From Nocardioides marinus (GTDB lineage: Bacteria > Pseudomonadota > Alphaproteobacteria > Rhodobacterales > Rhodobacteraceae): a stretch of DNA of 64,000 nucleotides. The stretch spans positions 248,001 to 312,000 of the forward strand of contig JAHVJD010000003.1 in NCBI GenBank assembly GCA_019801415.1. Reading direction: 5' to 3'. Each line of letters opens with the position of its first letter. Position 1 is the stretch's first letter. The position numbers were made by a program, and so were the translations under genes. This document shows positions 18,786 to 40,565 of the stretch, in pieces. The notes below the pieces were generated by a model, which worked only from the letters and a program-made list of their open reading frames with translations, had not been told where the DNA came from and ran no database searches.

Positions 18786-18791
18786 GGCCCG

Positions 18792-20824: not shown

Positions 20825-20840
20825 GATGCATTAGATGTGT

Positions 20841-22425: not shown

Positions 22426-22946
22426 CAGTCTTCGCCATCCGGATTGAGGATGGTTTTGACCCGGCCTGCCATCCGGGCGGTGCCGGTGGTCAGGTTCACC
22501 TCGAGCCGGTTTGACGTCAGGGTGTTGCCAGCCTGGGACAGCAGAACGTCTCCGGTCATCACGATCGTGCCGCTGTCGATGGAATATTCCGCGCGCTGCG
22601 ATTCCGCGGCGTCCGGTCCGCTGACCAAGAGGACATTTCCGGTGGCTTCCAGACGCTCGATGCCCTTGCGGGTCTGCCCGTCCTCCGCGGTTTTGTAGAT
22701 GACCAGAACCTTGTCGGCCGACAGGCGCATGATGCCCTGTGCGATCAGGACATTCCCGGTGAATTCAGCGGAGCCGTCAACCTGGCTGACCGCCAGATTG
22801 TCCGCCGTCACCTCAACCGGTTGGCTGGGATCTGCTTTCACGGCACCAAAGGCAACCTGCGCGTTTTGAGCCGCGGCGAGACCGGGATAAAGGCCAAGGG
22901 GCAGGGCCAGCGGGAAGCAAAATATCAATGCGCGCAAGTAAGACAC
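22425..22946 (-). CDS. lptA: LPS transport periplasmic protein LptA
   Basis: Periplasmic bridge protein of LPS export, in the OstA/LptA family. It is 173 residues with a signal peptide ([24 protein letters not shown]). The beta-jellyroll repeats are seen in [40 protein letters not shown] and [17 protein letters not shown]. The gene is 3 bases after lptC and overlaps lptB, so all three are translated together. Confidence 0.94.
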
Positions 22947-22949
22947 TGG

Positions 22950-23549: not shown

Positions 23550-23573
23550 GTCCTGATCTCCCGTGGCCCGATG

Positions 23574-24542: not shown

Positions 24543-25153
24543 GAGTGTGCAAAGATGTCGATTTCGGGCCAGCCGGCCAGGTCAAGTTTGGCGCGCATCG
24601 GCAGGAAGTCGAAACAGGCCTGGGCCATTTCCGTCCGCCCTTCACGGGCCAGCCGTTTGTCGAGTGCATTGCGCAGCCGGTGCAGGTGCAGCACGTCCGA
24701 GGCGGCGTAGTCCAGCTGCGCCTCGCTCAGTTCGGCGGCGCCCCAGTCGCTCATTTGCTGCTGTTTCGAGATGTCGATGCCCAGCAGTTCCTGGGTGAGG
24801 TTCTTCAGCCCGTGGCGGTCGGTATAGGTGCGCACCAGGCGACTGGCGATCTTGGTGCAATAGACCGGGGCCGTCAGCGCGCCAAAGGCGTGGTACAGTG
24901 CGGCGATGTCGAAACGGCCAAAGTGGAACAGCTTCAGCACATCGGGATCTTCCAGCATCCGGCACAGGTTGGGCGCTTCGGTCTGTCCCTTGGCGATCTG
25001 CACGATATGGGCGTCGCCATCCCCGCCGGACAGCTGGACCACGCACAGCCGGTCGCGATGCGGGTTCAATCCCATGGTTTCGCAGTCGATGGCAACAACG
25101 GGACCGAGGTCCAGCCCGTCGGGCAGGTCGTTCTTGTACAGGTGGTTGGCCAC
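24539..25153 (-). CDS. rnd: Ribonuclease D-type 3'-5' exonuclease
   Basis: DEDD-family 3'-5' exonuclease of the RNase D type, which trims 3' ends of tRNA and other small RNAs. The start is GTG 25153 (product begins MANHLYKNDLPDGLDLG), with AAAGGGA upstream. The 204-residue product is only the nuclease domain: Exo I AIDCETMGL, Exo II FHFGRFDIAALY, Exo III YAASDVLHLHRL. It lacks the HRDC domains of full-length E. coli RNase D, as is usual for the short alphaproteobacterial form. It heads the rnd-kdsD-lptCAB operon. Confidence 0.9.
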   Translation of the reverse strand: MANHLYKNDLPDGLDLGPVVAIDCETMGLNPHRDRLCVVQLSGGDGDAHIVQIAKGQTEAPNLCRMLEDPDVLKLFHFGRFDIAALYHAFGALTAPVYCTKIASRLVRTYTDRHGLKNLTQELLGIDISKQQQMSDWGAAELSEAQLDYAASDVLHLHRLRNALDKRLAREGRTEMAQACFDFLPMRAKLDLAGWPEIDIFAHS

Positions 25154-25318
25154 TGGAATTCCCTTTAGATGATCACCGCGTCGGCAGCGACGATTGGCAG
25201 CATTGCAGTGGAAATAGGCACTTTGGCTGTCAAACTCAACTGCGCTGAAGCCGACTGGTTTACATATGCCTGATCGGGCTGCCGATCGGCATGGCTGTAG
25301 GTGTCGTTTATCGGGGAA

Positions 25319-25405
25319 TGGTGCCCAGGAGAGGACTCGAACCTCCACGTCCATACGGACACTAGCACCTGAAGCTAGCGCGTCTACCAATTCCGCCACC
25401 TGGGC
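25319..25405 (-). tRNA. tRNA-Leu (anticodon CAG), copy 1
   Basis: An 87-nt tRNA with encoded CCA. The acceptor stem GCCCAGG pairs with CCTGGGC; the anticodon arm is CTAGC-TTCAGGT-GCTAG, giving anticodon CAG for the CUG codon. The long variable arm TGTCCGTATGGACGT marks it as a class II leucine tRNA. CTG is by far the most used leucine codon here. An identical gene lies at 40335-40421. Confidence 0.98.
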
Positions 25406-25421
25406 AGGTGTCTTGCAGGCG

Positions 25422-25450
25422 CGTATAAGCGGGTTTTCAGGGGGCGTCAA
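25422..25450 (-). promoter_or_regulatory. Promoter of tRNA-Leu copy 1
   Basis: Reading on the minus strand, -35 TTGACG (25445-25450) and -10 TATACG (25422-25427) are separated by 17 bases, with the tRNA 5' end 16 bases further on. The same arrangement, with a slightly different spacer, precedes copy 2. Confidence 0.8.
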
Positions 25451-25477
25451 ACGGAAAACGACGATCACGCCGCCGCA

Positions 25478-25495
25478 GCGTCATGGTTCTGTGAT
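25478..25495 (+). promoter_or_regulatory. Pho box upstream of plcP-btaA-btaB
   Basis: GCGTCAT-GGTT-CTGTGAT matches the direct-repeat PhoB-binding consensus CTGTCAT-N4-CTGTCAT at 11 of 14 defined bases with the correct 4-base gap. It ends 47 bases before the plcP start, a normal distance for an activated promoter. Phosphate-starvation control fits what is known of this lipid-remodelling operon. Confidence 0.65.
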
Positions 25496-25542
25496 GCGCG
25501 TGGTTTAGGTCCGAAGGTACGCAACCAGCCGGGGTCAGACCT

Positions 25543-26346
25543 GTGAAATACCGCACGATCTTCCTGTCGGACATTCATCTGGGGACACCGGGCTGCCAGG
25601 CCGATCTGCTGCTGGATTTCCTCAACCGACATGAGGCCGCGCAATACTACCTGGTGGGCGATATCGTCGATGCCTGGCGGATCCGGCGCAAGGGCTTTTT
25701 GTGGCCGCAGGCACATAACGACGTGGTGCAGGCGCTGCTGGAAAAGGCCCATGGTGGCGCCCGGATCTATCTGATTCCCGGCAACCATGACGAATTCCTG
25801 CGCTCCTACCTTGGCACCCATTTCGGTGGTATCGAGGTCTGCCGCAGCGCCGATTTCACGGCCGCCGACGGCAAGCGCTACCTGGTGACCCACGGCGACC
25901 AGTTCGATTCGGTGGTGGTCAATGCCCGCTGGCTCGCCCATCTGGGGGACCGGGCCTATGACTTCATGCTGTGGCTCAACACCCACGTCAACCGGGCGCG
26001 GCACCTGTGGGGCGGGCAGTACTGGTCGCTGTCGAAATGGGCCAAGCACCAGGTCAAACAGGCGGTCAACTTCATCAGCGAATACGAGGCGGTGCTGAGC
26101 GCCGAGGCCAAGCGCGGCGGCTATGACGGGGTGATCTGCGGCCATATCCACAGCGCCGCGATCCGCGATCTGGACGGGATCGCCTATGTGAACACTGGCG
26201 ATTGGGTCGAAAGCTGCACCGCGGTGGTGGAGCTGGAGGACGGCCGCCTGGCGCTGATCGATTGGGAGCACACCGCCCGCAAGGCGCGGCACCGCGACCG
26301 GGCCAGGCGCGCCCGGCGCAGGCAAAGGCAACTGGAAAATGTTTGA
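25543..26346 (+). CDS. plcP: Phospholipase C-type metallophosphoesterase PlcP
   Basis: A 267-residue calcineurin-like phosphoesterase with the full metal set: SDIHLG (about residue 9), GDIVDAWR (41), GNHDEF (77), HGDQFD (118), GHIHS (197) and NTGDW. Automatic annotation tends to call this family UDP-2,3-diacylglucosamine diphosphatase (LpxH-like). However, its position directly before btaA and btaB and the Pho box argue for PlcP, described in Sinorhizobium meliloti and marine bacteria. PlcP removes phosphate headgroups from membrane phospholipids when phosphate is scarce, giving the diacylglycerol that BtaA uses. The start is GTG 25543. The gap to btaA is 15 bases. Confidence 0.83.
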   Translation: MKYRTIFLSDIHLGTPGCQADLLLDFLNRHEAAQYYLVGDIVDAWRIRRKGFLWPQAHNDVVQALLEKAHGGARIYLIPGNHDEFLRSYLGTHFGGIEVCRSADFTAADGKRYLVTHGDQFDSVVVNARWLAHLGDRAYDFMLWLNTHVNRARHLWGGQYWSLSKWAKHQVKQAVNFISEYEAVLSAEAKRGGYDGVICGHIHSAAIRDLDGIAYVNTGDWVESCTAVVELEDGRLALIDWEHTARKARHRDRARRARRRQRQLENV

Positions 26347-26361
26347 AGAGGCGCGCGTTAG

Positions 26362-27579
26362 ATGACGATGACCGCACAGGCACAGCTGGATGCAGCGGTG
26401 CTGCAAGAGGGCGACGCGGCAACCGGGCGGCTGGAGCGGCTGTTCTCCCGGCTGTTTCTGGGGCTGGTCTATCCGCAGATCTGGGAGGATCCGACGGTGG
26501 ACATGGAGGCGCTGGGGATCACGCCGCAGGACAATCTGGTCTGCATCGCCTCGGGCAGCTGCAACCTGTTGTCCTATCTGGCCGCCGGGCCTGCCTCTGT
26601 CACCGGGGTGGATCTGTCGCCCGCCCATGTGGCGCTGGGCCGGTTGAAGCTGGCGGCGGCGCAGGCGCTGCCCGATCACGCGGCCTTCTACCAGTTCTTT
26701 GGACGCGCCGACATGGAGGCCAACCGCGCCCTGTACGAGCGCTACATCCGGGACCATCTGGACCCGGAGACGCGCGCGTTCTGGGACGGTCGGCGCCTGC
26801 TGCGCCGCCGGATCTCGGTGTTTCAGACCGGGTTCTACCGCCACGGGCTGCTGGGGCGTTTTCTGGGGGCAGTGCATCTGGTGGCGCGGCTGGGGCAGGT
26901 GGATTTCGCGCCGCTGCTGGCGGCGCGCACCCTGGCAGAGCAGCAGGCGTTCTTTGGTCAAAGGATCGCGCCGCTGTTCGATATGCGGCTGGTGCGCCTG
27001 CTGGCGGGCTTCCGCGCCTCGCTGTTTGGTCTCGGTATTCCGCCCGCGCAGTATGACAAGCTGGCCGCGGATGGCGGCGGCGATGTGCTGCCGGTTCTGC
27101 GCGAGCGGGTGCGCAAGCTGATGTGCGATTTCCCGATCCGGGAGAACTACTTTGCCTGGCAAGCCTTTGGCCGCTGCTACGACCCGGCGCCGGATGCGTC
27201 GCTGCCGCCCTATCTGCAGGCGCAGAACTTTGCCGCGCTGCGCCGCCATGCGGCCCGCGGGCGGTTATTCAACCGCTCGCTGACCGATCTGCTGGCGGCA
27301 GAGCCGACGGGGTCGAAACAGGGCTTTGTGCTGCTGGATGCGCAGGACTGGATGAACGACGCGCAGCTGAACGCGCTGTGGCAGGAGATCACCCGCACCG
27401 CCAGCCCCGGCGCGCGGGTCATATTCCGAACCGGCGGCGCGGCGGACATCCTGCCGGGGCGGGTTCGTGCCGACACTCTCGACCGCTGGCAGTACGATGC
27501 CGAAGGGTCTGCCCGTGGTACCGCGGTCGACCGCTCCGCCATCTACGGTGGCTTCCATCTTTACCGGTTTCAGGGGTGA
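26362..27579 (+). CDS. btaA: S-adenosylmethionine:diacylglycerol 3-amino-3-carboxypropyltransferase BtaA
   Basis: First enzyme of betaine lipid (DGTS) synthesis: it moves the aminocarboxypropyl group of SAM onto diacylglycerol to make diacylglycerylhomoserine. It is 405 residues, matching Rhodobacter sphaeroides BtaA. Hallmarks of the family (DUF3419) are YPQIWEDPTVDMEAL (about residues 37-51), the SAM loop CIASGSCNLLSYL (near 62), the VTGVDLSPAHVALG segment, and the later FVLLDAQDWMN. The stop overlaps the first candidate start of btaB, so the two are coupled. Confidence 0.93.
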   Translation: MTMTAQAQLDAAVLQEGDAATGRLERLFSRLFLGLVYPQIWEDPTVDMEALGITPQDNLVCIASGSCNLLSYLAAGPASVTGVDLSPAHVALGRLKLAAAQALPDHAAFYQFFGRADMEANRALYERYIRDHLDPETRAFWDGRRLLRRRISVFQTGFYRHGLLGRFLGAVHLVARLGQVDFAPLLAARTLAEQQAFFGQRIAPLFDMRLVRLLAGFRASLFGLGIPPAQYDKLAADGGGDVLPVLRERVRKLMCDFPIRENYFAWQAFGRCYDPAPDASLPPYLQAQNFAALRRHAARGRLFNRSLTDLLAAEPTGSKQGFVLLDAQDWMNDAQLNALWQEITRTASPGARVIFRTGGAADILPGRVRADTLDRWQYDAEGSARGTAVDRSAIYGGFHLYRFQG

Positions 27580-27584
27580 TGCCG

Positions 27585-28232
27585 ATGCTGGATACCGTTT
27601 CCCGATCCCACGCCGCGCTGATGGACGAGACCTACCGTCATCAGCGGCTGATCTATGATGTGACGCGCAAGTATTACCTGTTCGGGCGCGACCAGCTGAT
27701 TGCCGGGCTGGCACCGGGGCAGGGCACCCATGTGCTGGAGGTGGCCTGCGGCACCGGGCGCAACCTGCATCTGGCGGCCCGCAAGTATCCGCACAGTGCC
27801 TTTTACGGGCTGGATATCTCGGACGAGATGCTGAATTCCGCCCGCGCCAAGCTGGGGGATCATGTGCAGCTTGCGCGGGCCGATGCCTGCCACTTCGATG
27901 GCGGGCATCTGTTCCGGCGAGCGCAGTTCGACCGGGTGTTTATCTCTTACGGGCTGTCAATGATTCCGGACTGGCAGGCGGCGCTGCACATGGCCTGCGC
28001 CCATCTGGCACCGCACGGGCAGCTGCATGTGGTCGATTTCTCCGATCTGCACGGCTGGCCAAAGTGGTGCCGACGCGGGCTGAACCACTGGCTGGGCCGG
28101 TTCCACGTCACCCCGAGGCTGGAGCTGGAGGCGGCGCTGAACCGCGCCGCCGCCGGGATCGGCGGCAGCGTGCAGCACCGCCAGCTGTACCGCGGCTACG
28201 CGCAATACGGGGTGGTGCAGCGGCCGGGCTGA
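27585..28232 (+). CDS. btaB: Diacylglycerylhomoserine N-methyltransferase BtaB
   Basis: Methylates diacylglycerylhomoserine three times to give DGTS, the betaine lipid that replaces phosphatidylcholine or phosphatidylethanolamine under phosphorus limitation. It is 215 residues, near R. sphaeroides BtaB (about 210). The SAM site is VLEVACGTGRNLHLAARK, followed by YGLDISDEML and the YGLSMIPDW post-motif region. ATG 27585 is preferred as AGGGG lies 8 bases upstream; an in-frame ATG at 27579 overlapping the btaA stop is also possible. It ends 13 bases from the convergent ureG. Confidence 0.92.
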   Translation: MLDTVSRSHAALMDETYRHQRLIYDVTRKYYLFGRDQLIAGLAPGQGTHVLEVACGTGRNLHLAARKYPHSAFYGLDISDEMLNSARAKLGDHVQLARADACHFDGGHLFRRAQFDRVFISYGLSMIPDWQAALHMACAHLAPHGQLHVVDFSDLHGWPKWCRRGLNHWLGRFHVTPRLELEAALNRAAAGIGGSVQHRQLYRGYAQYGVVQRPG

Positions 28233-28245
28233 GGTGGCGCGCGCC

Positions 28246-28871
<626 letters not shown>

Positions 28872-28875
<4 letters not shown>

Positions 28876-29525
28876 GTCCGGAAAATCCTTGAATATTGGG
28901 TTTCATGTTGCATGGACGCGATGTCCGCGAGAAAGGCGGTGGAACTCAGATCCTGCAGGTTGCCCTGCAGCGCCTGCCGGGCAATCTCAGCGCACAGCGG
29001 CGTCAGGTCGCGGAGCAGGCGCTGGGCGTCGGTCTGGCCCAGCGGCACCAGCCGGGTGGCCACGGCGACGAGGTTGGCGGCGAAGGCCTGCAGGAACATC
29101 TGCGTGGTCAACAGCAGCGGCAGATCCTGCAGCCGCGCGGCGCGCCCCACAGCGACAGGATAGGACAGCCCGGCCAGCTCCAGCGCCCAGACATCGCCGG
29201 TGACGGTGCCAAAGGCCTGCCCGAGCAATGCCGTTTCCTTCAGCCGTTCGGCCGAGGCGCAAAAGGCGCGGGCGGCAGCGTCGATCTCGGCCAGTTCGCC
29301 AGCACCTTCTGCGCGGTAGGCCGCCGTCAGCAACAGCGCGTCGGACCGGCCCGAGCCGTGGTCCAGAACATCCGTGATCCACGCGCTGGTCTCCTGCGTC
29401 GAGGCCACCGTGCCGACATCAATCGCCGCCTCCAGCCCATGCGAATAGGCAAAGCCGCCCACCGGATAGGCAGGCGACAGCCATTGCGTCAGCGTCAGGA
29501 TGGCAGAGTCAGTGGGCGTGGCCAT
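28872..29525 (-). CDS. ureF: Urease accessory protein UreF
   Basis: All-helical activator that pairs with UreD and docks UreG on the apo-urease. It is 217 residues. The family start [26 protein letters not shown] is clear. The C-terminal segment is [17 protein letters not shown]. It overlaps ureE by 17 bases and ureG by 4, so all three are translated in a chain. Confidence 0.96.
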
Positions 29526-29949
29526 GGGTCCGCCCGTGGCCGTATGCGCCGCCTTCCGGGGTGAAGGGCTCCACCACCTGGCGGAGCTCGGCGCCCAGTT
29601 TTTGCAGCATGTCGCGGATCACGTGATCGCGCTGGATCAGCAGACGTTCCGCTTCGATCTGGCAGGGGGTGTGGCGGTTGCCGATGTGCCAGGCCAGCCG
29701 CAACAGATTTTCGCCGCGCACTTCCAGAAGTTCCTCGGGGGCGGCGATGATCTCGATCTCGCGGCCATCTTCCAGCCGGAGCACGCCACCATGGTCAAGC
29801 GAGCGCGTCTGCGCCAGATCGACCAGAAAGGCCTCGCCGGCGTCAGTGGTCAGCATCTTGCGGCGCAGGAAGCGGCCATCGTAATCGAGTGACACCCGGC
29901 CATCCGGCTGGCCGTGTGCATGATCGTGGTACACGCGGGCAGTCAGCAT
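29509..29949 (-). CDS. ureE: Urease accessory metallochaperone UreE
   Basis: Nickel donor for urease. It is 146 residues, with the N-terminal peptide-binding part (about 1-72) and C-terminal metal domain containing AWHIGNRHTPCQIEAERLLI, in which the bridging His is visible. A short histidine-rich tail, [11 protein letters not shown]-like ([10 protein letters not shown] at the end), is suited to nickel storage. A 43-base gap separates it from the DUF1127 gene upstream. Confidence 0.96.
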   Translation of the reverse strand: MLTARVYHDHAHGQPDGRVSLDYDGRFLRRKMLTTDAGEAFLVDLAQTRSLDHGGVLRLEDGREIEIIAAPEELLEVRGENLLRLAWHIGNRHTPCQIEAERLLIQRDHVIRDMLQKLGAELRQVVEPFTPEGGAYGHGRTHGHAH

Positions 29950-29992
29950 CCGGCTTCTCCCTGTTGGGACCGGACGCTGGACTGCAGATCCG

Positions 29993-30220
29993 TCAGACGT
30001 AATAAGTGTCGCGGAAGACGTGGTGGACGATGTCCTCGCGCTTCAGGCCGCGCTCGGCCAGCTGCGCATCGCTCATATCGTTGAGGCGCTGAACCGCCTG
30101 CATGCGAGCGTTGGATTCCGAGATCATCACGAAAGCCTTGCCGATTGCCGACGCGCTGCGGCGCAAGAAGCCTGCCAGATCGAAGGTCGGTGCGGTGGTT
30201 TGCGTTGCGTAGTTTGCCAT
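29993..30220 (-). CDS. DUF1127 small protein within the urease operon
   Basis: A 75-residue basic protein with the DUF1127 motif at its C-terminal part: AVQRLNDMSDAQLAERGLKREDIVHHVFRDTYYV, shown here by its halves RLNDMSDAQL and LAERGLKREDI. Small DUF1127 proteins of alphaproteobacteria have been linked to RNA binding and stress (for example CcaF1 in Rhodobacter sphaeroides). AAGGAG lies 9 bases before the ATG. It stands between ureC and ureE, which is not part of the standard urease set; a 16-bp palindrome upstream suggests separate control. A link to urea metabolism is inferred only from location. Confidence 0.88.
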   Translation of the reverse strand: MANYATQTTAPTFDLAGFLRRSASAIGKAFVMISESNARMQAVQRLNDMSDAQLAERGLKREDIVHHVFRDTYYV

Positions 30221-30269
30221 TGGAGATCACTCCTTTACCAGTGAACTCCTCCCTATGGCTCCGAACATA

Positions 30270-30285
30270 TGCTGCAGGTGCAGCA
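30270..30285. promoter_or_regulatory. 16-bp palindrome upstream of the DUF1127-ureEFG genes
   Basis: TGCTGCA-GG-TGCAGCA is a perfect 7+2+7 inverted repeat, 50 bases before the DUF1127 start in the 149-base gap after ureC. It looks like an operator for a dimeric regulator; no regulator is identified. Confidence 0.4.
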
Positions 30286-30369
30286 ATTGGTAGGGCGGTC
30301 GCCGCAAAGCCGGGATGTGTGCAGCGCAATGCCGGATTTTTGATCATCTGATGCTCCTGATGCATGATT

Positions 30370-32078
<1,709 letters not shown>

Positions 32079-32079
<1 letters not shown>

Positions 32080-32384
32080 CAGAGCGCCCCCATGACCTGT
32101 TGATTGAAACCGAAGATGCGGCGCGCACCGCCGATCGGGATCAGTTGCACCTCGCGGCGCTGGCCCGGCTCGAACCGCACGGCGGTGCCGGGGGCGATGT
32201 CCAGCCGCAGCCCGCGTGCCGCGGTGCGGTCAAACTCCAGCGCCGGGTTGGTTTCGGCGAAATGATAGTGCGAGCCGACCTGTACCGGGCGGTCGCCGGT
32301 GTTTGCGACCATCAGCGTCACCGCCTCGGCGCCCGCGTTCAGGGTGATTTCGCCCGCGGCCGGGAACAGCTCGCCGGGGATCAT
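32079..32384 (-). CDS. ureB: Urease beta subunit UreB
   Basis: Structural subunit of the bacterial three-subunit urease. It is 101 residues, beginning [20 protein letters not shown] and containing [21 protein letters not shown] and the typical [16 protein letters not shown]. It overlaps the small gene upstream by 4 bases (ATGA) and ureC by one base, so these are translated as one chain. Confidence 0.98.
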
Positions 32385-32542
32385 TTCGGCAGCTTCGACA
32401 GCAGGAAGACGGCAATGGCGGCCACCACCGCCAGGCCGGCACCCAAAGTGGCGTAATCGATGCCATGGGCGTGCACATGGGGCTGGCTGTGGGCCATCGC
32501 GGGACCGGAGAGGACAAGCGCGGGAAACAGGATGCGGTTCAT
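32381..32542 (-). CDS. 53-residue His-rich single-pass membrane protein in urease operon
   Basis: A short gene between ureA and ureB. The product begins [20 protein letters not shown], a signal peptide likely cleaved after AMA. Next comes a histidine cluster ([10 protein letters not shown]), then one transmembrane helix ([20 protein letters not shown]) at the C-terminus. AGGAG lies 9 bases before the ATG and the stop overlaps the ureB start (ATGA), so it is clearly translated with urease. I do not recognise a family; the exposed histidines in the periplasm and the nickel context suggest a metal or transport accessory role, perhaps a remnant of a HupE/UreJ-type permease. This is inference. Confidence 0.8.
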
Positions 32543-32562
32543 GGGGAGACTCCTATGACGGG

Positions 32563-32865
32563 TTAGCGGATGGGATTGTGGACGGTGACCAGCTTGGTGC
32601 CATCGCGGAAGGTGGCCTCGACCTGGACCTCGTGGATCATCTCGGGCACGCCCTCCATGCAGTCCTCGCGGCGGACCACTTCGGCACCGGCCTGCATCAT
32701 GTCGGCGACCGAGCGGCCGTCGCGGGCGCCCTCGACCACAGCATCGGTGATCAGGGCGATGGCCTCGGGGTGGTTCAGACGCACGCCGCGCGCCAGCCGT
32801 TTGCGGGCGACCTCGGCGGCCATGGCGACCAGCAGCTTGTCTTTTTCACGCGGGGTCAGGTTCAT
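32563..32865 (-). CDS. ureA: Urease gamma subunit UreA
   Basis: Smallest structural subunit of urease. It is 100 residues: [20 protein letters not shown] at the start, then [21 protein letters not shown] and the [14 protein letters not shown] end. It lies 1 base after ureD and 20 bases before the 53-residue gene. No defect is visible. Confidence 0.98.
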
Positions 32866-32866
32866 G

Positions 32867-33664
32867 TCATATCATCCAGCATCGGGGGAGAGGGTCGGGG
32901 TTCAGCCGCCGCAGCACCGGCAGCATGGCGCGGCGCAGCTCGAAACTGTCGGCCGCGAGGATCCGGATCACCAAAAGATCTGGGTCCAGCAAACTGGCGC
33001 CGGCGCTATCGGGCAGCATCCGGCGGACCGGGTCCAGCTGGGCTTCGGCACTGGCGGCGGCAAAGACGATCGACGCCATCGCACCGGCGCCGTTCGCCAC
33101 ATGCGGCCGGGCCAGATGCGCGCTGAGATCACCGGCAAAGCGCGTCGCGTCCAGAAAGACGGGGTGGCCCGCGCGACGGATCTCGATCCGGTCGCGCAGC
33201 CGTATGCGGTTCAGCTGCTCGCCCATGGCGGCGCGCCCGAACACCATGGGCTCCACCAGCAGCAGGCTGGCATCCTCGGCCAGATCGGCCCGTAACTGCC
33301 GGTCCAGCGCGCTGCCTTCAAACAGGATGGTCTCCTGCGGCAGCCAGTTCAGCCGCGCGCCGGGGCCGATTGCCAGCTGGTTGCGGACCTGCCCGTAGGG
33401 GCCGGGCTGCGCCTGATAGGCCCGCTCGCAGGCCTGTGTGGTCAAGGTCAGCGTGGTGCCCGCCCCCGCCTCTGCCGCCAGATCAAAGGCATCGCCGCCG
33501 GTGATCCCGCCCGCGGTGTTCAGCAGCACCGCCTCAAGCGCGTCCGAAGTGGTGCGCGGAAACAGGCATTTGAAGGATCCCGACTGGCGCAAGCCGTCCA
33601 GCACAGAGCGCTGGCCAAGCCGCTTGCTGCCAAGCTGTACCGCGCCGCGCGCCCGCGGCGGCAT
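32867..33664 (-). CDS. ureD: Urease accessory protein UreD
   Basis: Scaffold that binds apo-urease and UreF and channels nickel in. The start at ATG 33664 gives 265 residues, opening [18 protein letters not shown], in line with UreD proteins (RAxGxxxL); longer reading would add a run of unrelated basic residues. Later motifs: [44 protein letters not shown]. There is no obvious ribosome site before the ATG. It heads the operon ureD-A-(53 aa)-B-C-DUF1127-E-F-G. Confidence 0.93.
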
Positions 33665-34096
33665 CGCCGGTGCGCAGGGCGTGGCTGCGTGCGGGGATAT
33701 GGGGGTAAGTTGTGTGATCGGGCACCTGTCGGAAATCTTTCGGTGCCTCTTGTTTCCCCGCTGGGTCCCGCGAATGCCAATGTGGCGTGCAGCGGCGGAG
33801 CCAATTCCCCTGCGGGTGACCGTTTTTTGGACAAAAGCCCTGCTGCGGGATGAAAAATTGGGCAGAGGCCGCTGATTTCCGCCAGCGCGGCTCGGGCCTG
33901 TTGCCAAGTTCGCCGCAATGCAGCGAGCGTGGAGCCACCCAGAGAGGCGACAACGCCCGGGGGGTGTGCGGCGGCTGCGCGACTTGGACCTCGACAACAA
34001 CCGCCGCACGGATCGCAACAACAGTTGCGGGGATCAGGTAGAGGAAGACTGCGCCTGCGTGCAAGCCCTCCGTTCCGGCCCCGCTTGGAGGATTAC
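33665..34096. other. Divergent ureD/urtA control region
   Basis: 432 bases without a gene between the divergent urease and urea-transporter operons. It holds an inverted repeat GGCACC-N15-GGTGCC (33721-33747), a sigma-54-like site on the minus strand (33788-33803), and a GGAGG-type ribosome site for urtA (34086-34092). I found no convincing sigma-70 promoter. Nitrogen control would be expected from the genes but is not proved by the sequence. Confidence 0.7.
33788..33803 (-). promoter_or_regulatory. Possible sigma-54 promoter of the urease operon
   Basis: On the minus strand TGGCTCCGCCGCTGCA has GG and GC at the strict -24/-12 spacing and matches TGGCACG-N4-TTGCA at most fixed positions. It is about 125 bases before the ureD start. 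A chance match in GC-rich DNA is quite possible. Confidence 0.3.
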
Positions 34097-35377
34097 ATGA
34101 CATCTCTCAAATCCACGCTCGCCGGGTCGGTCGTTTTCGCTGCCATGGCCACTGCCGCGCTGGCCGATGACGACACCATCAAGGTCGGCGTGCTGCATTC
34201 ACTGTCCGGCACGATGGCGATTTCGGAAACCACCCTGAAAGACACCATGCTGATGCTGATCGACCAGCAAAACGCCAAGGGCGGCCTTCTGGGCAAGCAG
34301 CTGGAGCCGGTCGTGGTCGACCCCGCCTCCGACTGGCCGCTGTTTGCGGAAAAGGCGCGCGAGCTGCTGACCGTGCACGAAGTCGACGTGATCTTCGGCA
34401 ACTGGACCTCCGTCAGCCGCAAGTCGGTGCTGCCGGTGATCGAGGAGCTGAACGGGCTGCTGTTCTACCCGGTGCAGTACGAGGGCGAGGAGTCCTCGAA
34501 GAACGTCTTTTACACCGGCGCGGCCCCGAACCAGCAGGCCATCCCTGCTACCGACTATTTCCTGGAGGAACTGGGGGTCGAGAAATTTGCTCTGCTCGGC
34601 ACGGACTATGTCTACCCCAGGACCACCAATAACATCCTCGAAAGCTACCTGAAGCAGAAGGGCGTGGCGGATTCCGATATCTTCGTGAACTACACGCCCT
34701 TCGGCCATTCCGACTGGTCCAAGATCGTCGCCGACGTGGTGGCGCTGGGCGCCGACGGCAAGAAAGTCGGGGTGATCTCGACCATCAACGGCGACGCCAA
34801 CATCGGTTTCTACAAGGAACTCGCGGCGGCGGGGGTGTCGGCGGATGACATTCCGGTCGTCGCCTTCTCGGTCGGCGAGGAAGAACTGTCGGGCCTCGAT
34901 ACCGCCAATCTGGTGGGCCATCTGGCGGCCTGGAACTACTTCCAGTCGGCAGACACCGAGGCCAATGCCGAGTTTGTGAAGACCTGGAAAGCCACCATGG
35001 GTGAAGACCGGGTGACCAACGATCCGATGGAGGCGCATTACATCGGCTTCAACATGTGGGTGAACGCCGCGACCGAGGCGGGCACCACCGAAGTGGACGC
35101 GGTGCGCGCGGCGATGTACGGGCAGGAATACCCGAACCTGACCGGCGGCACCGCGGTGATGCTGCCGAACCACCATCTGGCCAAGCCGGTGCTGATCGGC
35201 GAGATCCAGGCGGACGGCCAGTTTGACATCATCAGCGAAACCGACGTGGTGCCGGGCGATGCCTGGACCGACTACCTGCCGGAATCGGCGGTGCTGAAGT
35301 CGGATTGGAAGGATCTCGGCTGCGGCATGTACAACACCGAGACCGAGACCTGCGTTCAGACGCTGTCGAACTACTGA
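34097..35377 (+). CDS. urtA: Urea ABC transporter substrate-binding protein UrtA
   Basis: Periplasmic high-affinity urea receptor. ATG 34097 has TTGGAGG 6 bases upstream and gives 426 residues with a signal peptide (MTSLKSTLAGSVVFAAMATAALA). Family features are DDTIKVGVLHSLSGTMAISETTLKD, EVDVIFGNWTSVSRKSVLPV, LFYPVQYEGEESS, and NHHLAKPVLIGEIQADG. It leads the operon urtABCDE and faces the urease operon across a 432-base gap. Confidence 0.97.
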   Translation: MTSLKSTLAGSVVFAAMATAALADDDTIKVGVLHSLSGTMAISETTLKDTMLMLIDQQNAKGGLLGKQLEPVVVDPASDWPLFAEKARELLTVHEVDVIFGNWTSVSRKSVLPVIEELNGLLFYPVQYEGEESSKNVFYTGAAPNQQAIPATDYFLEELGVEKFALLGTDYVYPRTTNNILESYLKQKGVADSDIFVNYTPFGHSDWSKIVADVVALGADGKKVGVISTINGDANIGFYKELAAAGVSADDIPVVAFSVGEEELSGLDTANLVGHLAAWNYFQSADTEANAEFVKTWKATMGEDRVTNDPMEAHYIGFNMWVNAATEAGTTEVDAVRAAMYGQEYPNLTGGTAVMLPNHHLAKPVLIGEIQADGQFDIISETDVVPGDAWTDYLPESAVLKSDWKDLGCGMYNTETETCVQTLSNY

Positions 35378-35449
35378 CCCGAACGGCGGGGTGGGCCCGG
35401 CGGCCCGCCCCGCACCGGGACGCTCCCCAAGACAATCAGGTTTCAGCAG

Positions 35450-37402
35450 ATGTTACGACTATTCCTTGCGGGCCTCGCACTCCTGTGCGCCTGCATGACG
35501 GCCAGTGCCCAGGAGACCGCGCTGCAGCCGGTGCTGCAGGCGCATCAGGCGGCCATTCTCAAAAGCTCCCGCAAGACGATCCAGCCGGCCATCGATGCCA
35601 TTGCCGCCAGCGGGCTGCCGCAGGCGCAGACCATGCTGGAAAGCTGGGCCGCCAAGGACATGTGGATGCGCAAGGCGGATGGGTACTTCTTTGCCGGGGC
35701 AAAGGGCGAGGGCGGCAGCTATGTACTGACCGATTTCGACAGCGGCGAGACTGTGGGCAGCTTTGACAAGTCCGCGCTCAAGCAGTTGAAACCCAACAGC
35801 GGCGTGCGGGCGCTGATCGCCACCGCGCTGGTTCAGTTCCAGCTGAGCGACCCGGACCGCGCCAAGCGGCTGGCGGCACTGGAGTCGATCGCCCGCGATC
35901 CCGAGGCCTCCTTGCTGGCGCCGCTGCGCGCCTCGATCGGCGGTGAGGCTGACGCGCAGATCAAGGCGCAGAAACAGCGGCTGGAGCGGCTTTTGACCAT
36001 CGGCTATGACGCTGATACCGCTGCCCGTGTTGCGGCCATCGCGGACATGTCTGGCGATCTGGGCCTTGATGTGCGCGCGGCGCTGAATCCGCTGGTGGTG
36101 ACCACGCGGCAGGCAGCCAAGTCGTTGCCGGAAGACGCCAATCTTGCCGCAGTGCTGACGCCGGGATCGGACGAACTACCCAAGGATCAAGCCTATGATC
36201 TGCTCGTGGAAAACAACCTGGCGGTGCCACGTGTGTCGGCGGACGCCATCCGCGTTGCACTGGCAGACAACATCGAAGGCGGCCGGGTCGGCGGGGTGCC
36301 GCTGGCACAGCTGAGCGCAGAGGATGGCCGCAGCCGGGCCTATGCGGCGCTGGCCGCAGAGGGCAAGGTGCCGCCATTGGTCACCACCGCCGATATGGAT
36401 GCTGCGCTGGGCGCCCATGTGTTCTTTGACACTTATGCGGAACCCGCCGCCGAGGTCACCGCTGCCGCCGAAACCGCGCTGGACCAGATCGCGCTGAAGG
36501 TCGGCATGAACCAGACGCTGGACCTGACGCTGGACGCTGTGTCGCTGGCCTCGATCTATTTCCTCGCCGCGATCGGGCTGGCCATCACCTTTGGCGTGAT
36601 GGGGGTGATCAACATGGCCCATGGCGAGTTCATCATGATGGGCGCCTATACCGGCTATGTCGTGCAGCAGATCATCCCCGACCACACGCTGTCGATCATC
36701 GTGGCGATTCCGATGGCCTTTGCCGTGACCTTTGCCATGGGGGTGGCGATGGAGCGGCTGGTGATCCGCTGGCTCTATGCCCGCCCGCTGGAGACGCTGC
36801 TGGCGACCTTCGGCATTTCCATCGCGCTGCAGCAGTTGGCCAAGAACATCTTTGGCACACAGGCGCGGCCGCTGACCGCGCCGGGCTGGCTGGACGGCGC
36901 GTGGGTGCTGAACGACGTGGTGTCGATCAGCTATATCCGCATCGCGATCTTCGTTCTGGCGCTGACCTTCCTCGGCCTGTTCCTGTTCATCATGAAGCGC
37001 ACCCGGCTGGGGCTGGAGATGCGCGCGGTGACGCAGAACCCGCGCATGGCGGGGTCGATGGGGATCAATCCGGGCCGGGTCAACATGCTGACCTTCGGTC
37101 TGGGTTCCGGCATTGCCGGCATTGCCGGCGTCGCCATCGGCCTGTTCGCCAAGGTGACCTCGGACCTTGGCAACGACTATATCGTGCAGAGCTTCATGAC
37201 CGTGGTTGTCGGCGGTGTCGGCAACATCTGGGGCGCGCTGGCCGGGGCCGGGATGATCGGCTTTTTGCAAAAGGGGATCGAGTGGGCCAACCCCTCGAAC
37301 ACGCTGGCGGCGCAGACCTACATGATCATCTTCATCATCATTTTCATCCAGTTCCGGCCGCGGGGGATCATCGCCCTCAAGGGCCGCGCGGCGGGGGATT
37401 GA
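35450..37402 (+). CDS. urtB: Urea ABC transporter permease UrtB
   Basis: Inner-membrane permease of the LivH type for urea. It is 650 residues because a signal peptide (LFLAGLALLCACMTASA) and a long periplasmic region of about 330 residues precede the membrane domain. The membrane part begins near residue 350 (AIGLAITFGVMGVINMAHGEFIMMGAY) and contains about eight helices to GMIGFLQKGIEWANPSNTL. The extended N-terminus is common in UrtB, absent from amino-acid LivH proteins. urtC follows after 3 bases. Confidence 0.96.
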   Translation: MLRLFLAGLALLCACMTASAQETALQPVLQAHQAAILKSSRKTIQPAIDAIAASGLPQAQTMLESWAAKDMWMRKADGYFFAGAKGEGGSYVLTDFDSGETVGSFDKSALKQLKPNSGVRALIATALVQFQLSDPDRAKRLAALESIARDPEASLLAPLRASIGGEADAQIKAQKQRLERLLTIGYDADTAARVAAIADMSGDLGLDVRAALNPLVVTTRQAAKSLPEDANLAAVLTPGSDELPKDQAYDLLVENNLAVPRVSADAIRVALADNIEGGRVGGVPLAQLSAEDGRSRAYAALAAEGKVPPLVTTADMDAALGAHVFFDTYAEPAAEVTAAAETALDQIALKVGMNQTLDLTLDAVSLASIYFLAAIGLAITFGVMGVINMAHGEFIMMGAYTGYVVQQIIPDHTLSIIVAIPMAFAVTFAMGVAMERLVIRWLYARPLETLLATFGISIALQQLAKNIFGTQARPLTAPGWLDGAWVLNDVVSISYIRIAIFVLALTFLGLFLFIMKRTRLGLEMRAVTQNPRMAGSMGINPGRVNMLTFGLGSGIAGIAGVAIGLFAKVTSDLGNDYIVQSFMTVVVGGVGNIWGALAGAGMIGFLQKGIEWANPSNTLAAQTYMIIFIIIFIQFRPRGIIALKGRAAGD

Positions 37403-37405
37403 GCC

Positions 37406-38632
37406 ATGGAACGCAGCTTTATCGCCAGGAACCCCTCGGTTCTGATCTTTCTGGCCATTCTGTCGCTGTTCACCTTTGGTGTCACCGTCCTGTCGGAGGG
37501 CTTTGGCATCGGCCTGATCTCCACCAGTTTCGTCAAGACGCTGGGCAAGACCCTGTGCCTGTGCCTGATCGCGGTGGCGATGGACCTGGTCTGGGGCTTT
37601 GCCGGCATCCTGTCGCTGGGGCATTTCGCCTTCTTCGGGCTGGGCGGCTACATGATCGGCATGTGGCTGATGTATGAGCGCACCCGGCTGATCGTGGCCG
37701 AGTCGCTGGCCCAGGGCGACATCCCGCCCACCGCGGCAGAGGTCACGGACGCCATCGGCAACCAGATCTTCGGCGTCGTGGGGTCGTCCGAGTTTCCGCT
37801 GATCTGGGCCTTTGCAGACAGTCTGGCATTGCAGCTGGCGCTGGTGGTGCTGGTTCCGGGGGTGCTGGCGCTGCTGTTCGGCTGGCTGGCGTTCCGCAGC
37901 CGGGTGACCGGCGTGTACCTGTCGATCCTGACCCAGGCGATGACCCTGGCGCTGGCGTTGTACCTGTTTCAGAACGACAGCGGCCTGCGTGGCAACAACG
38001 GGCTGTCGGGCCTGCAGAACCTGCCCGGCGTCAGCGCCCCGCAATCGGTGGTGTCGGTGTGGTTCCTCTGGGCCTCGGCGGCGGCATTGGGTCTGGGGTT
38101 CCTGCTGGCGGCCTGGCTGGTGTCGGGCAAGTTCGGCTCTGTCGTGCGCGGCATCCGCGACAACGAGGCGCGGGTGCGCTTCCTTGGCTACTCGGTCGAG
38201 GTCTACAAGCTTGCGGTTTTTACCCTGACTGCCTGTATCGCCGCCATTGCGGGCGCGCTGTACTACCCACAGGCAGGCATCATCAACCCCGAGGAAATGG
38301 CTCCTATCGCCTCGATCTACCTGGCGGTCTGGGTTGCCATCGGCGGGCGTGGACGGCTGTACGGCGCGGTCATCGGCGCCGCCTTCGTCAGCCTGCTCAG
38401 CACCTGGTTCACCGGCGGGCAGGCGCCCGATGTGTCCCTTGGGTTCTACACGATCAAATGGGTCGACTGGTGGCAGGTGCTTCTGGGCGTGTCCTTTGTG
38501 CTGGTCACCCTGTTTGCGCCGCAAGGCATCGGCGGGCTGTTTGACCTTTGGGCGCGGCGGCGGGCCGACCGCCATGGCGCGGATCTGGGGCCGGACGACG
38601 GTGCCCTGCGTGAAAAGGAGGCCAGCCAATGA
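37406..38632 (+). CDS. urtC: Urea ABC transporter permease UrtC
   Basis: Second permease subunit, of the LivM type, 408 residues. About ten hydrophobic segments are seen, with AMDLVWGFAGILSLGHFAFFGLGGY near residue 55 and the FGSVVRGIRDNEARVRFLGYSVE loop that contacts the ATPases near residue 245. The end runs FLRP-like WWQVLLGVSFVLVTLFAPQG. The stop overlaps the urtD start by 4 bases. Confidence 0.96.
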   Translation: MERSFIARNPSVLIFLAILSLFTFGVTVLSEGFGIGLISTSFVKTLGKTLCLCLIAVAMDLVWGFAGILSLGHFAFFGLGGYMIGMWLMYERTRLIVAESLAQGDIPPTAAEVTDAIGNQIFGVVGSSEFPLIWAFADSLALQLALVVLVPGVLALLFGWLAFRSRVTGVYLSILTQAMTLALALYLFQNDSGLRGNNGLSGLQNLPGVSAPQSVVSVWFLWASAAALGLGFLLAAWLVSGKFGSVVRGIRDNEARVRFLGYSVEVYKLAVFTLTACIAAIAGALYYPQAGIINPEEMAPIASIYLAVWVAIGGRGRLYGAVIGAAFVSLLSTWFTGGQAPDVSLGFYTIKWVDWWQVLLGVSFVLVTLFAPQGIGGLFDLWARRRADRHGADLGPDDGALREKEASQ

Positions 38633-39369
38633 GCACGCTTTTGGAGGTGAGCGGCGTCTCCGTCAGCTTTGACGGCTTTCGCGCCATCAACAACCTGTCG
38701 TTCCGCATCGCCGATGCCGAGCTGCGCGCCGTGATTGGCCCCAACGGGGCTGGCAAGACGACCTTCATGGACATCATCACCGGCAAGACCCGTCCGGACG
38801 AGGGCCGGGTGATCTGGGGCGAGAAATCCGTGTCGCTCTTGCGGATGAGCGAGGCGGCGATTGCCCAGGCGGGCATCGGGCGGAAGTTCCAGAAACCCAC
38901 GGTGTTCGAGGATCAGACCGTGCAGGAAAACTTGCTGATGGCGCTGAAGAACACCCGCGGCTGGCTGGGGGTGTTGTTCTACCGGCCCAACCCCGAAGAT
39001 CTGGATCGGGTCGCGGAGCTGGCCGAAGAGATCGGCCTGAAGGACGCGCTGCGCCGCAAGTCGGGCGAGCTGAGCCACGGTCAGAAGCAGTGGCTGGAAA
39101 TCGGCATGCTGCTGGCGCAGGAGCCGCGGCTGCTGCTGGTGGACGAGCCCGCCGCCGGCATGACCCCGCAGGAGCGCGAGCACACCACCGATTTGCTGGT
39201 GCAGGCGGCCAGGACCCGCGCCGTTGTGGTGGTGGAGCACGATATGGAGTTCGTGCGGCGGCTGAACTGCAAGGTCACGGTGCTGCACGAAGGCTCGGTT
39301 CTGGCCGAGGGCAGCCTCGACCATGTTACATCCAATCAGGACGTCATCGACGTCTACCTGGGGCGCTGA
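38629..39369 (+). CDS. urtD: Urea ABC transporter ATP-binding protein UrtD
   Basis: ATPase subunit of the LivG type, 246 residues. Walker A is GPNGAGKTTFMD, the signature LSHGQKQWLEIGM (Ser-His replacing the usual Ser-Gly, normal in this family), Walker B PRLLLVDEPAAGM, and the switch VVVEHDMEFV. It pairs with UrtE to power urea import. Confidence 0.96.
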   Translation: MSTLLEVSGVSVSFDGFRAINNLSFRIADAELRAVIGPNGAGKTTFMDIITGKTRPDEGRVIWGEKSVSLLRMSEAAIAQAGIGRKFQKPTVFEDQTVQENLLMALKNTRGWLGVLFYRPNPEDLDRVAELAEEIGLKDALRRKSGELSHGQKQWLEIGMLLAQEPRLLLVDEPAAGMTPQEREHTTDLLVQAARTRAVVVVEHDMEFVRRLNCKVTVLHEGSVLAEGSLDHVTSNQDVIDVYLGR

Positions 39370-39372
39370 GAG

Positions 39373-40068
39373 ATGCTGAAACTATCCGATCTGACCCTGC
39401 ATTACGGGCATTCGCAAATCCTCAACGGGATCTCGATGGAGGCCCGCGAGGGCGAGGTGACCTGCGTGATGGGCACCAATGGCGTCGGCAAGACCAGCCT
39501 GATGAAGGCGATCTCCGGCGCGCATCCGCGCTCCGGCGGCCGTCTGGAGCTGGGCGGCGAGACCCTGGGCGTGTTGCCCGCGCACCGGATGGCCTGGAAG
39601 GGTGTCGCCTATGTGCCGCAGGGGCGCGAGATCTTTCCGCTGCTGACGGTGCGCGAGAATCTGGAGACCGGGTTTTCCTGCCTTCCGGCGTCTGCGCATT
39701 TTGTGCCGGACGAGATTTTCGATCTGTTTCCGGTGCTGAAGAAGATGCAGAACCGCCGCGGCGGCGATCTGTCCGGTGGCCAGCAGCAGCAATTGGCGAT
39801 TGCGCGCGCGCTGATCACCAAGCCGCGGCTCCTACTGCTGGATGAGCCGACGGAGGGCATCCAGCCCAACATCATCCAGCAGATTGGCGAGGTGATCCGC
39901 CACCTACGCGCCTCCGGCAGCATGGCGATTGTACTGGTCGAGCAGTACTTTGATTTTGCCTATGAGCTGGCAGACCGTTTGGTCGTCCTGCGCCGTGGTG
40001 AAATTATGCTCGAGGGGACCCGCAACGAGTTGTCCCGCGAGGCGGTGCTGCAGGGTGTCAGCGTCTAG
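39373..40068 (+). CDS. urtE: Urea ABC transporter ATP-binding protein UrtE
   Basis: ATPase subunit of the LivF type, 231 residues. Walker A is GTNGVGKTSLMK, signature LSGGQQQQLAIARAL, Walker B PRLLLLDEPTEGIQPN, switch VLVEQYFDFA. It closes the operon; no terminator is evident in the 38 bases before tRNA-Thr, which is on the other strand. Confidence 0.96.
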   Translation: MLKLSDLTLHYGHSQILNGISMEAREGEVTCVMGTNGVGKTSLMKAISGAHPRSGGRLELGGETLGVLPAHRMAWKGVAYVPQGREIFPLLTVRENLETGFSCLPASAHFVPDEIFDLFPVLKKMQNRRGGDLSGGQQQQLAIARALITKPRLLLLDEPTEGIQPNIIQQIGEVIRHLRASGSMAIVLVEQYFDFAYELADRLVVLRRGEIMLEGTRNELSREAVLQGVSV

Positions 40069-40106
40069 CGCAGGGAACGTTGATGGGTAGGGGATCCGGG
40101 GAGGAC

Positions 40107-40182
40107 TGGTGCCGGTGATAGGACTCGAACCTACGACCCCATCATTACGAATGACGTGCTCTACCAGCTGAGCTACACCGGC
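40107..40182 (-). tRNA. tRNA-Thr (anticodon CGT)
   Basis: A 76-nt tRNA with encoded CCA. The acceptor GCCGGTG pairs with CACCGGC; D arm TAGCTCAGCTGGTAGAGC; anticodon arm CGTCA-TTCGTAA-TGATG gives CGT, reading ACG; T arm GTAGGTTCGAGTCCTAT. It lies between urtE and tRNA-Leu copy 2. Confidence 0.97.
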
Positions 40183-40225
40183 ACTCTTCCTCTCCGCCTG
40201 ACCCGAAGGCCTTGCGGATGGACGT

Positions 40226-40254
40226 CGTTTAAACTCTGTCCAGCGCCAGTGCAA
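40226..40254 (-). promoter_or_regulatory. Promoter of tRNA-Thr
   Basis: On the minus strand TTGCAC (40249-40254) and TAAACG (40226-40231) are separated by 17 bases, about 43 bases upstream of the tRNA 5' end. The -10 is weaker than those of the tRNA-Leu copies. Confidence 0.55.
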
Positions 40255-40334
40255 GTGGCGAAGACGCAGGTTTGACGCCGGACCACACGGCAATCCGCCG
40301 GGCAGTTTTACTAAAATATCGCAATGTCGGGGAA

Positions 40335-40421
40335 TGGTGCCCAGGAGAGGACTCGAACCTCCACGTCCATACGGACACTAGCACCTGAAGCTAGCGCGTC
40401 TACCAATTCCGCCACCTGGGC
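40335..40421 (-). tRNA. tRNA-Leu (anticodon CAG), copy 2
   Basis: Identical over all 87 nt to the tRNA at 25319-25405: class II structure, anticodon CAG, encoded CCA. It is upstream of tRNA-Thr on the same strand, though each has its own promoter. Confidence 0.98.
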
Positions 40422-40437
40422 AGGTGTCGTGCAGGCG

Positions 40438-40466
40438 CGTATAAGCAGGTTTTCGGGGGCCGTCAA
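40438..40466 (-). promoter_or_regulatory. Promoter of tRNA-Leu copy 2
   Basis: TTGACG (40461-40466) and TATACG (40438-40443) on the minus strand, 17-base spacer. Both boxes are identical to copy 1; three of the four repeat differences fall in the spacer. Confidence 0.8.
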
Positions 40467-40565
40467 ACGGAAAACGTGACCTGTGCGGCCTTTCCCAGAT
40501 GCGGCGAATGCGGCACGTGTTAACGGCTTTTTGCAGGATCTGGTGCCACATCCGGAGGAAACCCG

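What the first reader, a model, noticed from the sequence alone, without database searches (positions are those of the whole stretch)
25311..40476. Identical tRNA-Leu(CAG) genes in 150-bp direct repeats bracket a 15-kb lipid-remodelling and urea-nitrogen segment
Seen directly: 146 of 150 bases match, the repeats have the same orientation, sharp edges, and each has a whole tRNA plus promoter. The interval holds plcP-btaA-btaB, the urease operon, urtABCDE and tRNA-Thr. Homologous recombination between the repeats would loop out this interval and leave one tRNA-Leu copy, so the cell could lose or gain urea use and phosphorus sparing as one block. Integrase islands normally duplicate only the tRNA 3' end; a whole tRNA with promoter suggests segmental duplication or transposition by recombination instead.
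Basis: partly seen in the sequence, partly recalled or inferred. Interest (0 to 1): 0.78.

Follow-up and report, generated by a model that had tools for sequence, protein, structure and literature searches.

The report
tRNA-Leu repeats flip the replication origin
The two identical tRNA-Leu genes are real, but they belong to a set of three scattered copies at which related marine bacteria have repeatedly flipped a stretch of about 116,000 bases that appears to hold the chromosome's replication origin, while the 15,000 bases between the two copies are a changeable neighbourhood rather than a mobile block.

Summary
The "mobile block" reading is not supported. The genome has a third, inverted copy 117 kb away; 17 of 21 genomes of the genus, which includes Leisingera aquaemixtae, have three copies. 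The copies' flanks are re-paired between species. In six genomes a ~116-kb segment between inverted copies is collinear but flips, and the small interval sits at either end of it; all four arrangements that keep one circle occur. Sister species G002 and G003 differ by a ~128-kb inversion bounded by tRNA-Leu units. The segment carries a GC-skew change and maf-hemJ-rho-mnmE-mnmG-rsmG-parA-parB, so probably oriC. The 15-kb contents are not a unit: in the genus ureC is in 3 of 21 genomes, btaA in 5, urtA in 1; six relatives hold other genes there. Tandem copies without the interval exist in Phaeobacter italicus and Tritonibacter litoralis. Best reading: duplication and dispersal of a tRNA gene, then homologous recombination around the origin, as rrn operons do in Salmonella.

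The parts
25311..25460 (-). tRNA-Leu(CAG) unit, copy 1: promoter region plus whole tRNA (25319-25405); 3' side faces rnd, promoter side faces plcP
40327..40476 (-). tRNA-Leu(CAG) unit, copy 2 (tRNA 40335-40421); 3' side faces tRNA-Thr, promoter side faces NDUFA9-like gene
1..25163 (.). right-hand end of the ~116-kb segment (G000 C3:157161-273163) that flips between species; the rest, with the inferred oriC at C3 ~191.7-192.1 kb and the third tRNA-Leu copy at C3:156717-156864(+), lies left of the window
24539..25153 (-). rnd (ribonuclease D-like, below the NCBIfam cut-off), downstream flank of copy 1
25543..26346 (+). calcineurin-like phosphoesterase (plcP-like), promoter-side flank of copy 1; also next to a tRNA-Leu in G005 and G020
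26362..27579 (+). btaA (DUF3419)
27576..28232 (+). btaB-like methyltransferase
28246..33772 (-). urease genes ureG, ureF, ureE, a 140-aa ORF without family, ureC, ureB, ureA, ureD
33929..40068 (+). urtABCDE urea ABC transporter
40107..40182 (-). tRNA-Thr(CGT), only full match in this genome; also in the small interval of G002, G003, G006, G009, G019
40637..41629 (+). NDUFA9-like NAD(P)-binding epimerase-family protein, promoter-side flank of copy 2 and of the single tRNA-Leu in other genera

Best explanation
The repeat is a tRNA-Leu(CAG) gene with its promoter that was duplicated in tandem between NDUFA9 and rnd and spread to a third place, so that the genus carries three copies, in inverted orientation on the two sides of the replication origin. 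Homologous recombination between inverted copies flips the ~116-kb origin segment, or that segment plus the small interval; because the origin lies inside the flipped piece, gene direction relative to the forks is unchanged and replichore lengths shift only by tens of kb, so flips are tolerated. The two copies in the window are the direct pair; the DNA between them is a tolerant pocket whose contents turn over, here tRNA-Thr, ure-urt and bta. Shown: copy number, re-paired flanks, collinear flipped segments, breakpoints at or next to the tRNA units, spread of a tRNA variant across copies. Inferred: the order of events, RecA-type recombination, the oriC assignment (skew plus gene order), neutrality of flips, and fork stalling at these tRNA genes, all transcribed towards the origin in the regions examined, as a trigger.
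For: Third inverted copy. Three copies in 17 of 21 genus genomes against one in 154 of the 160 matching genomes of 198 searched, one per genus. Flanks re-paired between species. Six genomes share the collinear segment (~113 kb aligned) in both orientations, and the four single-circle arrangements all occur. G002 against G003 (95.7% nt): one ~128-kb inversion; three of the four block ends run into the tRNA units, the rnd-side one stops 0.7 kb (G002) or 0.2 kb (G003) short; the unit sequences show upstream and downstream flanks swapped across an identical tRNA, rnd side included. G016 against G007: segment inverted between tRNA copies. tRNA variant C48T/T53A is in all three copies of G002 and G003, one of three in G006, and in none of the other 49 of 56 copies. 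Origin: skew change in eight regions and a DnaA-box-like site in the three genomes scanned; Rho, MnmE, MnmG, RsmG, ParA, ParB, Maf, HemJ hits; a ~400-bp intergenic stretch found in all eight regions, with rho 36-39 kb from the tRNA-Leu on one side and 76-89 kb from the nearest on the other. Tandem ancestor: L095, L152.
Against: RecA dependence is untested. G000 is a 20-contig draft, so its own junctions could be misassembled, although they match the tandem layout of P. italicus. In G001, G004, G010, G014, G020 and in the group G007, G011, G012, G013, G015, G016, G018 the segments between copies have other ends, and G020 shows a further pairing (hemN-rnd with X-Y), so rearrangements not at tRNA-Leu also occurred. 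The skew is strong on the long side of the inferred origin but near zero between it and hemY, with the opposite sign only beyond the tRNA-Leu, so skew alone does not fix the origin. HemJ, ParA and the MnmG piece score below their curated cut-offs. Promoter homogenisation is weak: the best within-genome paralog beats the mean same-flank ortholog in only 32 of 55 copies. Low tree support (0.41-0.47) in one group makes the number of flips uncertain, and the node joining G000 to the other genus members has 0.56.
Confidence: 0.82

Rival explanations
1. The two direct repeats bracket a block that loops out by recombination, so cells gain or lose urea use and phosphorus sparing together.
For: Direct orientation and 97% identity, the joint-highest within-genome value with a G013 pair, are enough for recombination; the pair in G000 looks recently homogenised.
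Against: The interval is kept in all seven genus genomes where it is continuous and no looped-out state appears among 17 with three copies; G008, G014, G017 and G020 are incomplete drafts for this question. None of six relatives has ure or urt in the interval. ureC 3 of 21, btaA 5 of 21, urtA 1 of 21, in different combinations. In the eight other-genus urt loci read, urt is on another contig than tRNA-Leu (seven) or 59 kb away (one), with no plcP or btaA in the stretch. Loss would remove the only full tRNA-Thr(CGT) match.
Confidence: 0.06
2. A site-specific tyrosine recombinase acting at tRNA-Leu makes the inversions, as proposed for Thermococcales.
For: tRNA genes are common integrase targets; the archaeal pTN3 integrase inverts DNA between tRNA genes (PMC5495485, abstract and passages read). 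All 21 genomes have PF00589 matches.
Against: No integrase-like ORF in the eight 127-162-kb regions by phmmer with one Xer-like query, a weak test; no partial tRNA copies in the G000 region; one exchange maps to a perfectly identical tRNA within longer homology, which ordinary recombination explains. The PF00589 listing was cut, so two of four G000 matches were not seen.
Confidence: 0.08
3. The changed pairings are assembly errors at a 150-bp repeat.
For: The repeats are short and near-identical; many of the genomes are drafts, up to 410 contigs.
Against: The flips are seen among assemblies of 3-8 contigs with 4.1-4.4 Mb in one contig (G002, G003, G006, G009, G019), follow the tree in part, and in the six genomes compared each arrangement respects a single circle.
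Confidence: 0.04

Closest known systems
rrn-operon recombination types of host-specific Salmonella (PMC2957434, abstract read)
   Same: Dispersed RNA-gene repeats recombine, segments between them keep their content but change order and orientation, and a limited set of arrangement types results.
   Different: Here the repeat is a 150-bp tRNA gene unit instead of an rRNA operon, there are three copies, and the differences seen are between species rather than strains.
Origin-centred (replication-associated) inversions of bacterial chromosomes (PMC9584773, start of abstract and passages read)
   Same: The inverted segment contains the (here inferred) origin; repeats at breakpoints are one proposed route.
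   Different: The breakpoints are the same tRNA genes in several species, and the segment is small (~116-130 kb) and off-centre.
Integrase-driven inversions between tRNA genes in Thermococcales (PMC5495485, abstract and passages read)
   Same: Large inversions end in tRNA genes.
   Different: There a mobile-element integrase is the agent; none was found near these copies with the one query used, and a tRNA variant shared across copies points to ordinary recombination.
tRNA-borne genomic islands (recalled)
   Same: A variable segment beside a tRNA.
   Different: Whole tRNA with promoter region at both ends, no integrase identified, no partial tRNA copy.

Membership tests
Repeat-mediated origin-centred inversion (rrn-type) | Breakpoints lie in dispersed inverted repeats | tested here: met
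Repeat-mediated origin-centred inversion (rrn-type) | Segment between repeats keeps its gene order | tested here: met
   about 113 of 116 kb aligned collinearly in G000 against five genomes; in G007 and G016 only about the first 96 kb
Repeat-mediated origin-centred inversion (rrn-type) | Inverted segment contains the replication origin | tested here: met
   by sequence only, not by experiment: skew change, gene order, conserved intergenic stretch
Repeat-mediated origin-centred inversion (rrn-type) | Depends on homologous recombination (RecA) | not testable with these tools
   indirect: a tRNA variant spread over copies
Integrase-type genomic island at a tRNA | Integrase gene next to the tRNA | tested here: not met
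   window interval genes identified except one 140-aa ORF, none an integrase; phmmer negative in eight regions, one query only
Integrase-type genomic island at a tRNA | Partial tRNA 3'-end duplicate at the far end | tested here: not met
   three full copies; otherwise only matches of 12-13 bases in 162 kb
Block mobilised by flanking direct repeats | Same block present or absent as a unit in relatives | tested here: not met
Block mobilised by flanking direct repeats | Excised circle or deletion junction in a population | not testable with these tools
   no reads available
Thermococcales-type tRNA inversion | Mobile-element integrase as agent | tested here: inconclusive

The most novel reading that the evidence does not exclude
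Three tRNA-Leu genes, transcribed towards the origin and set on both of its sides, act as a long-lived origin-flip switch: fork stalling at them drives recurrent recombination, so single strains may be mixtures of origin orientations, with changed neighbours and dosage for the genes at the joints.
Probability: 0.12. Interest if true: 0.75.

Novelty: new variant of a known kind. Interest (0 to 1): 0.55.

Why it matters
It gives a compact natural test of why some inversions are tolerated: one 150-bp tRNA unit, three copies, a collinear segment holding the likely origin, and all four allowed arrangements across related species. It also warns that a tRNA-bracketed segment need not be an island, and suggests how a tandem tRNA duplication can open a pocket for cargo near the origin.

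Tried and rejected
Integrase island: rejected (no integrase identified, no partial tRNA). Excisable urea/lipid block: rejected on phyletic distribution and interval turnover. Chance repeat: rejected. Promoter consensus scan: no hit under its strict rule. Promoter homogenisation as proof of gene conversion: only weak (32 of 55); the shared tRNA variant is better evidence. Identity of flanks by distance bins showed the repeat edges but no clear flank-specific promoter signal. Paper searches for reports of this in the group: 'Leisingera'+'synteny'+'inversion' gave 0 papers; 'Phaeobacter'+'chromosomal rearrangement'+'tRNA' gave 1, on Octadecabacter, listing only; some searches gave only analogues in the rows shown (15 of 396, 5 of 5, 12 of 1,128, 12 of 79, 12 of 75, 12 of 12); the oriC search gave nothing useful in 8 of 11 rows.

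Rows dropped: G017 (410 contigs, four near-full-length places on four contigs, three of them at or within a few bases of a contig end) was left out of the pairing table and the tree; G008 (one copy), G014 and G020 (two copies each) were kept but not counted among the 17. G005 is printed as X-Y because the fetched stretch ended before rnd; L185 shows rnd on that side, so I count it as X-rnd.
Full report
Observation. The repeat finder returns 25311-25460 and 40327-40476, direct, 150 nt, 97%; ARAGORN finds a whole tRNA-Leu(CAG) in each, on the minus strand, and tRNA-Thr(CGT) at 40107-40182. The four differences lie upstream of the tRNA. The interval genes are a calcineurin-like phosphoesterase, btaA, a btaB-like methyltransferase, ureGFE-x-CBAD and urtABCDE.

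More than two copies. The genome holds a third full copy, 91%, inverted, 117 kb to the left of the first (G000 C3:156717-156864). Of 21 genomes of the same genus 17 have three copies; G014 and G020 have two, G008 one and G017 four places on small contigs. In a family survey of 198 genomes, one per genus, 160 had a match at E up to 1e-24 and 154 of these had one; more than one in G000, G094, G119, G130, G218 and G237 (at most four candidates were scored per genome).

Where the pair came from. Among the best 80 named loci around rnd, 13 have NDUFA9, tRNA-Leu and rnd in that order; 10 have one tRNA-Leu, 3 have two. None of the 13 shows plcP, btaA or ureC (urt was not a marker there). In the other 67 rnd is not in that order with both within the fetched stretch. 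The two-copy cases are Phaeobacter italicus (starts 286 bp apart), Tritonibacter litoralis (270 bp) and Rhodobacteraceae bacterium Alg231_04 (2.5 kb); the unnamed G119 has a pair 2.1 kb apart. So the window's layout NDUFA9-Leu-[15 kb]-Leu-rnd is best read as a tandem duplication into which DNA came later (inference). Two Pseudophaeobacter genomes have one copy at NDUFA9-rnd and one beside the hemN-like gene, there without hemY in the ~10 kb read.

Re-paired flanks. I oriented each copy (U = promoter side, D = 3' side). U flanks are NDUFA9, a HemN-like radical-SAM gene, or X (variable); D flanks are rnd, HemY, or Y (usually the tRNA-Thr side). In the 17 genomes with three copies the pairings are: NDUFA9-Y, hemN-hemY, X-rnd in four (G000, G007, G013, G018); NDUFA9-hemY, hemN-Y, X-rnd in eleven (G001, G004, G005, G006, G009, G010, G011, G012, G015, G016, G019; G005 completed); NDUFA9-Y, hemN-rnd, X-hemY in G002; NDUFA9-rnd, hemN-Y, X-hemY in G003. 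The two copies seen in G020 are hemN-rnd and X-Y.

What moves. For G000, G002, G003, G006, G009 and G019 I compared 143-162 kb. The rnd-to-hemY segment (G000 C3:157161-273163) is collinear in all, about 113 kb aligned, but in either orientation relative to the outer flanks, and the small X-Y interval lies beside NDUFA9 or beside hemN. With these three segments six pairings are possible; two would close the small interval into a separate circle, leaving four (my enumeration). All four occur. G002 and G003, 95.7% identical over the segment, differ by inversion of segment plus interval. Three of the four block ends run into the tRNA units; the rnd-side one stops 0.7 kb (G002) or 0.2 kb (G003) short. 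The unit sequences show the exchange directly: each upstream flank has swapped its downstream flank, the first bases of the rnd side included, and the tRNA between is identical. G016 and G007 differ by inversion of another version of the segment, again between tRNA copies. On a 12-protein tree G000 is the first branch of the genus and G002/G003 are sisters; by hand parsimony at least four tRNA-mediated changes are needed, five if G013 and G007/G018 changed separately (support there 0.41-0.47, 0.56 for the genus node, root placed on T. litoralis).

Exchange between copies. 48 of 56 copies have the same tRNA sequence. The variant C48T/T53A is in all three copies of G002 and G003 and in one of three copies of their relative G006, in none of G009 or G019. 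That is what conversion between copies gives. The promoter parts are less clear: the best paralog exceeds the mean same-flank ortholog in 32 of 55 copies. The G000 pair, at 97%, is as alike as any (G013 also has a 97% pair).

The segment holds the likely origin. In the eight regions GC skew is strongly signed on the long side of one point, about C3 192-195 kb in G000, near zero between that point and hemY, and mostly of opposite sign just beyond the tRNA-Leu there. At the point lie maf, an intergenic stretch with a DnaA-box-like site (scanned in three genomes), hemJ, rho, mnmE, mnmG, rsmG, parA and parB (HemJ, ParA and the MnmG piece below the curated cut-offs); that this order marks alphaproteobacterial origins is recalled. 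The 400-bp stretch is found at 75-81% in the seven other regions, always inside the flipped segment, and rho lies 36-39 kb from the tRNA-Leu on one side and 76-89 kb from the nearest on the other. Every tRNA-Leu copy in these regions is transcribed towards this point (strands, positions). A flip of an origin-bearing segment leaves every gene in the same direction relative to its fork and moves the origin by some 40-60 kb. That would explain why these inversions are tolerated (inference). I cannot explain the near-zero skew of the short side.

The 15-kb contents. In G002, G003, G009 and G019 the same interval holds a flavin monooxygenase-like gene, a small companion, an AraC-like regulator and tRNA-Thr; G003 has an inserted IS110-like gene (by eye); G006 keeps only remnants of that set plus other genes, and G005 has plcP-bta plus other genes. 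plcP-btaA lies beside a tRNA-Leu in G000, G005 and G020, elsewhere in G010 (189 kb away) and on another contig in G013. ureC is in 3 of 21 genus genomes, in the two others on other contigs than tRNA-Leu, and urtA passes E 1e-60 only in G000, although 131 of 198 genomes, one per genus of the family, have urtA. Of eight other-genus urt loci read, six show ure beside urt and none shows plcP, btaA or NDUFA9 in the stretch; tRNA-Leu is on another contig in seven and 59 kb away in G119. tRNA-Thr(CGT) has one full match in G000.

Mechanism. Shown: re-paired flanks, collinear inverted segments, breakpoints at the tRNA units, a variant shared across copies. Inferred: RecA-type recombination; extra copies kept for decoding CUG, frequent in GC-rich genomes (recalled); stalling of forks at tRNA genes transcribed against them as a trigger. 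An integrase as agent, as in Thermococcales (PMC5495485, abstract and passages), is not excluded, but none was found in the eight regions with one query. Not all differences are at tRNA-Leu: in G007 and G016 the segment departs from G000 at C3:253275, and G001, G004, G010, G014 and G020 also have other segment ends.

Place among known systems. It works like rrn recombination in Salmonella (PMC2957434, abstract) and like origin-centred inversions (PMC9584773, passages), with a short tRNA unit as the repeat. I found no report for this genus in the searches named in Tried and rejected, in a library that lacks most subscription journals. Verdict: the repeat is real, the mobile-block reading is not supported, and the better story is recurrent inversion of an origin-bearing segment at triplicated tRNA-Leu genes.

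Noticed in passing
window ~5275 (G000 C3:253275): In G007 and G016 the otherwise collinear origin segment departs from G000 here, a breakpoint that is not at a tRNA-Leu copy.
   Followed up: partly
L038 (G003), between its two tRNA-Leu copies: IS110-like transposase ORF in the small interval that G002 lacks (family named by eye).
   Followed up: no
window 29943-30365: 140-aa ORF between ureE and ureC without a match in Pfam or NCBIfam.
   Followed up: no
G000 C3:160-195 kb (L212, L213): Near-zero GC skew on the short side of the inferred origin in the compared genomes, in both orientations.
   Followed up: no
L178 (Alg231_04 genome) and L179 (G119): tRNA-Leu pairs with 2.5 and 2.1 kb between starts, possible early stages of interval growth; contents not annotated.
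   Followed up: no
G094: Four tRNA-Leu matches, two of them at contig starts and one at a contig end (C38, length), in another genus of the family: possibly another multiplied set.
   Followed up: no
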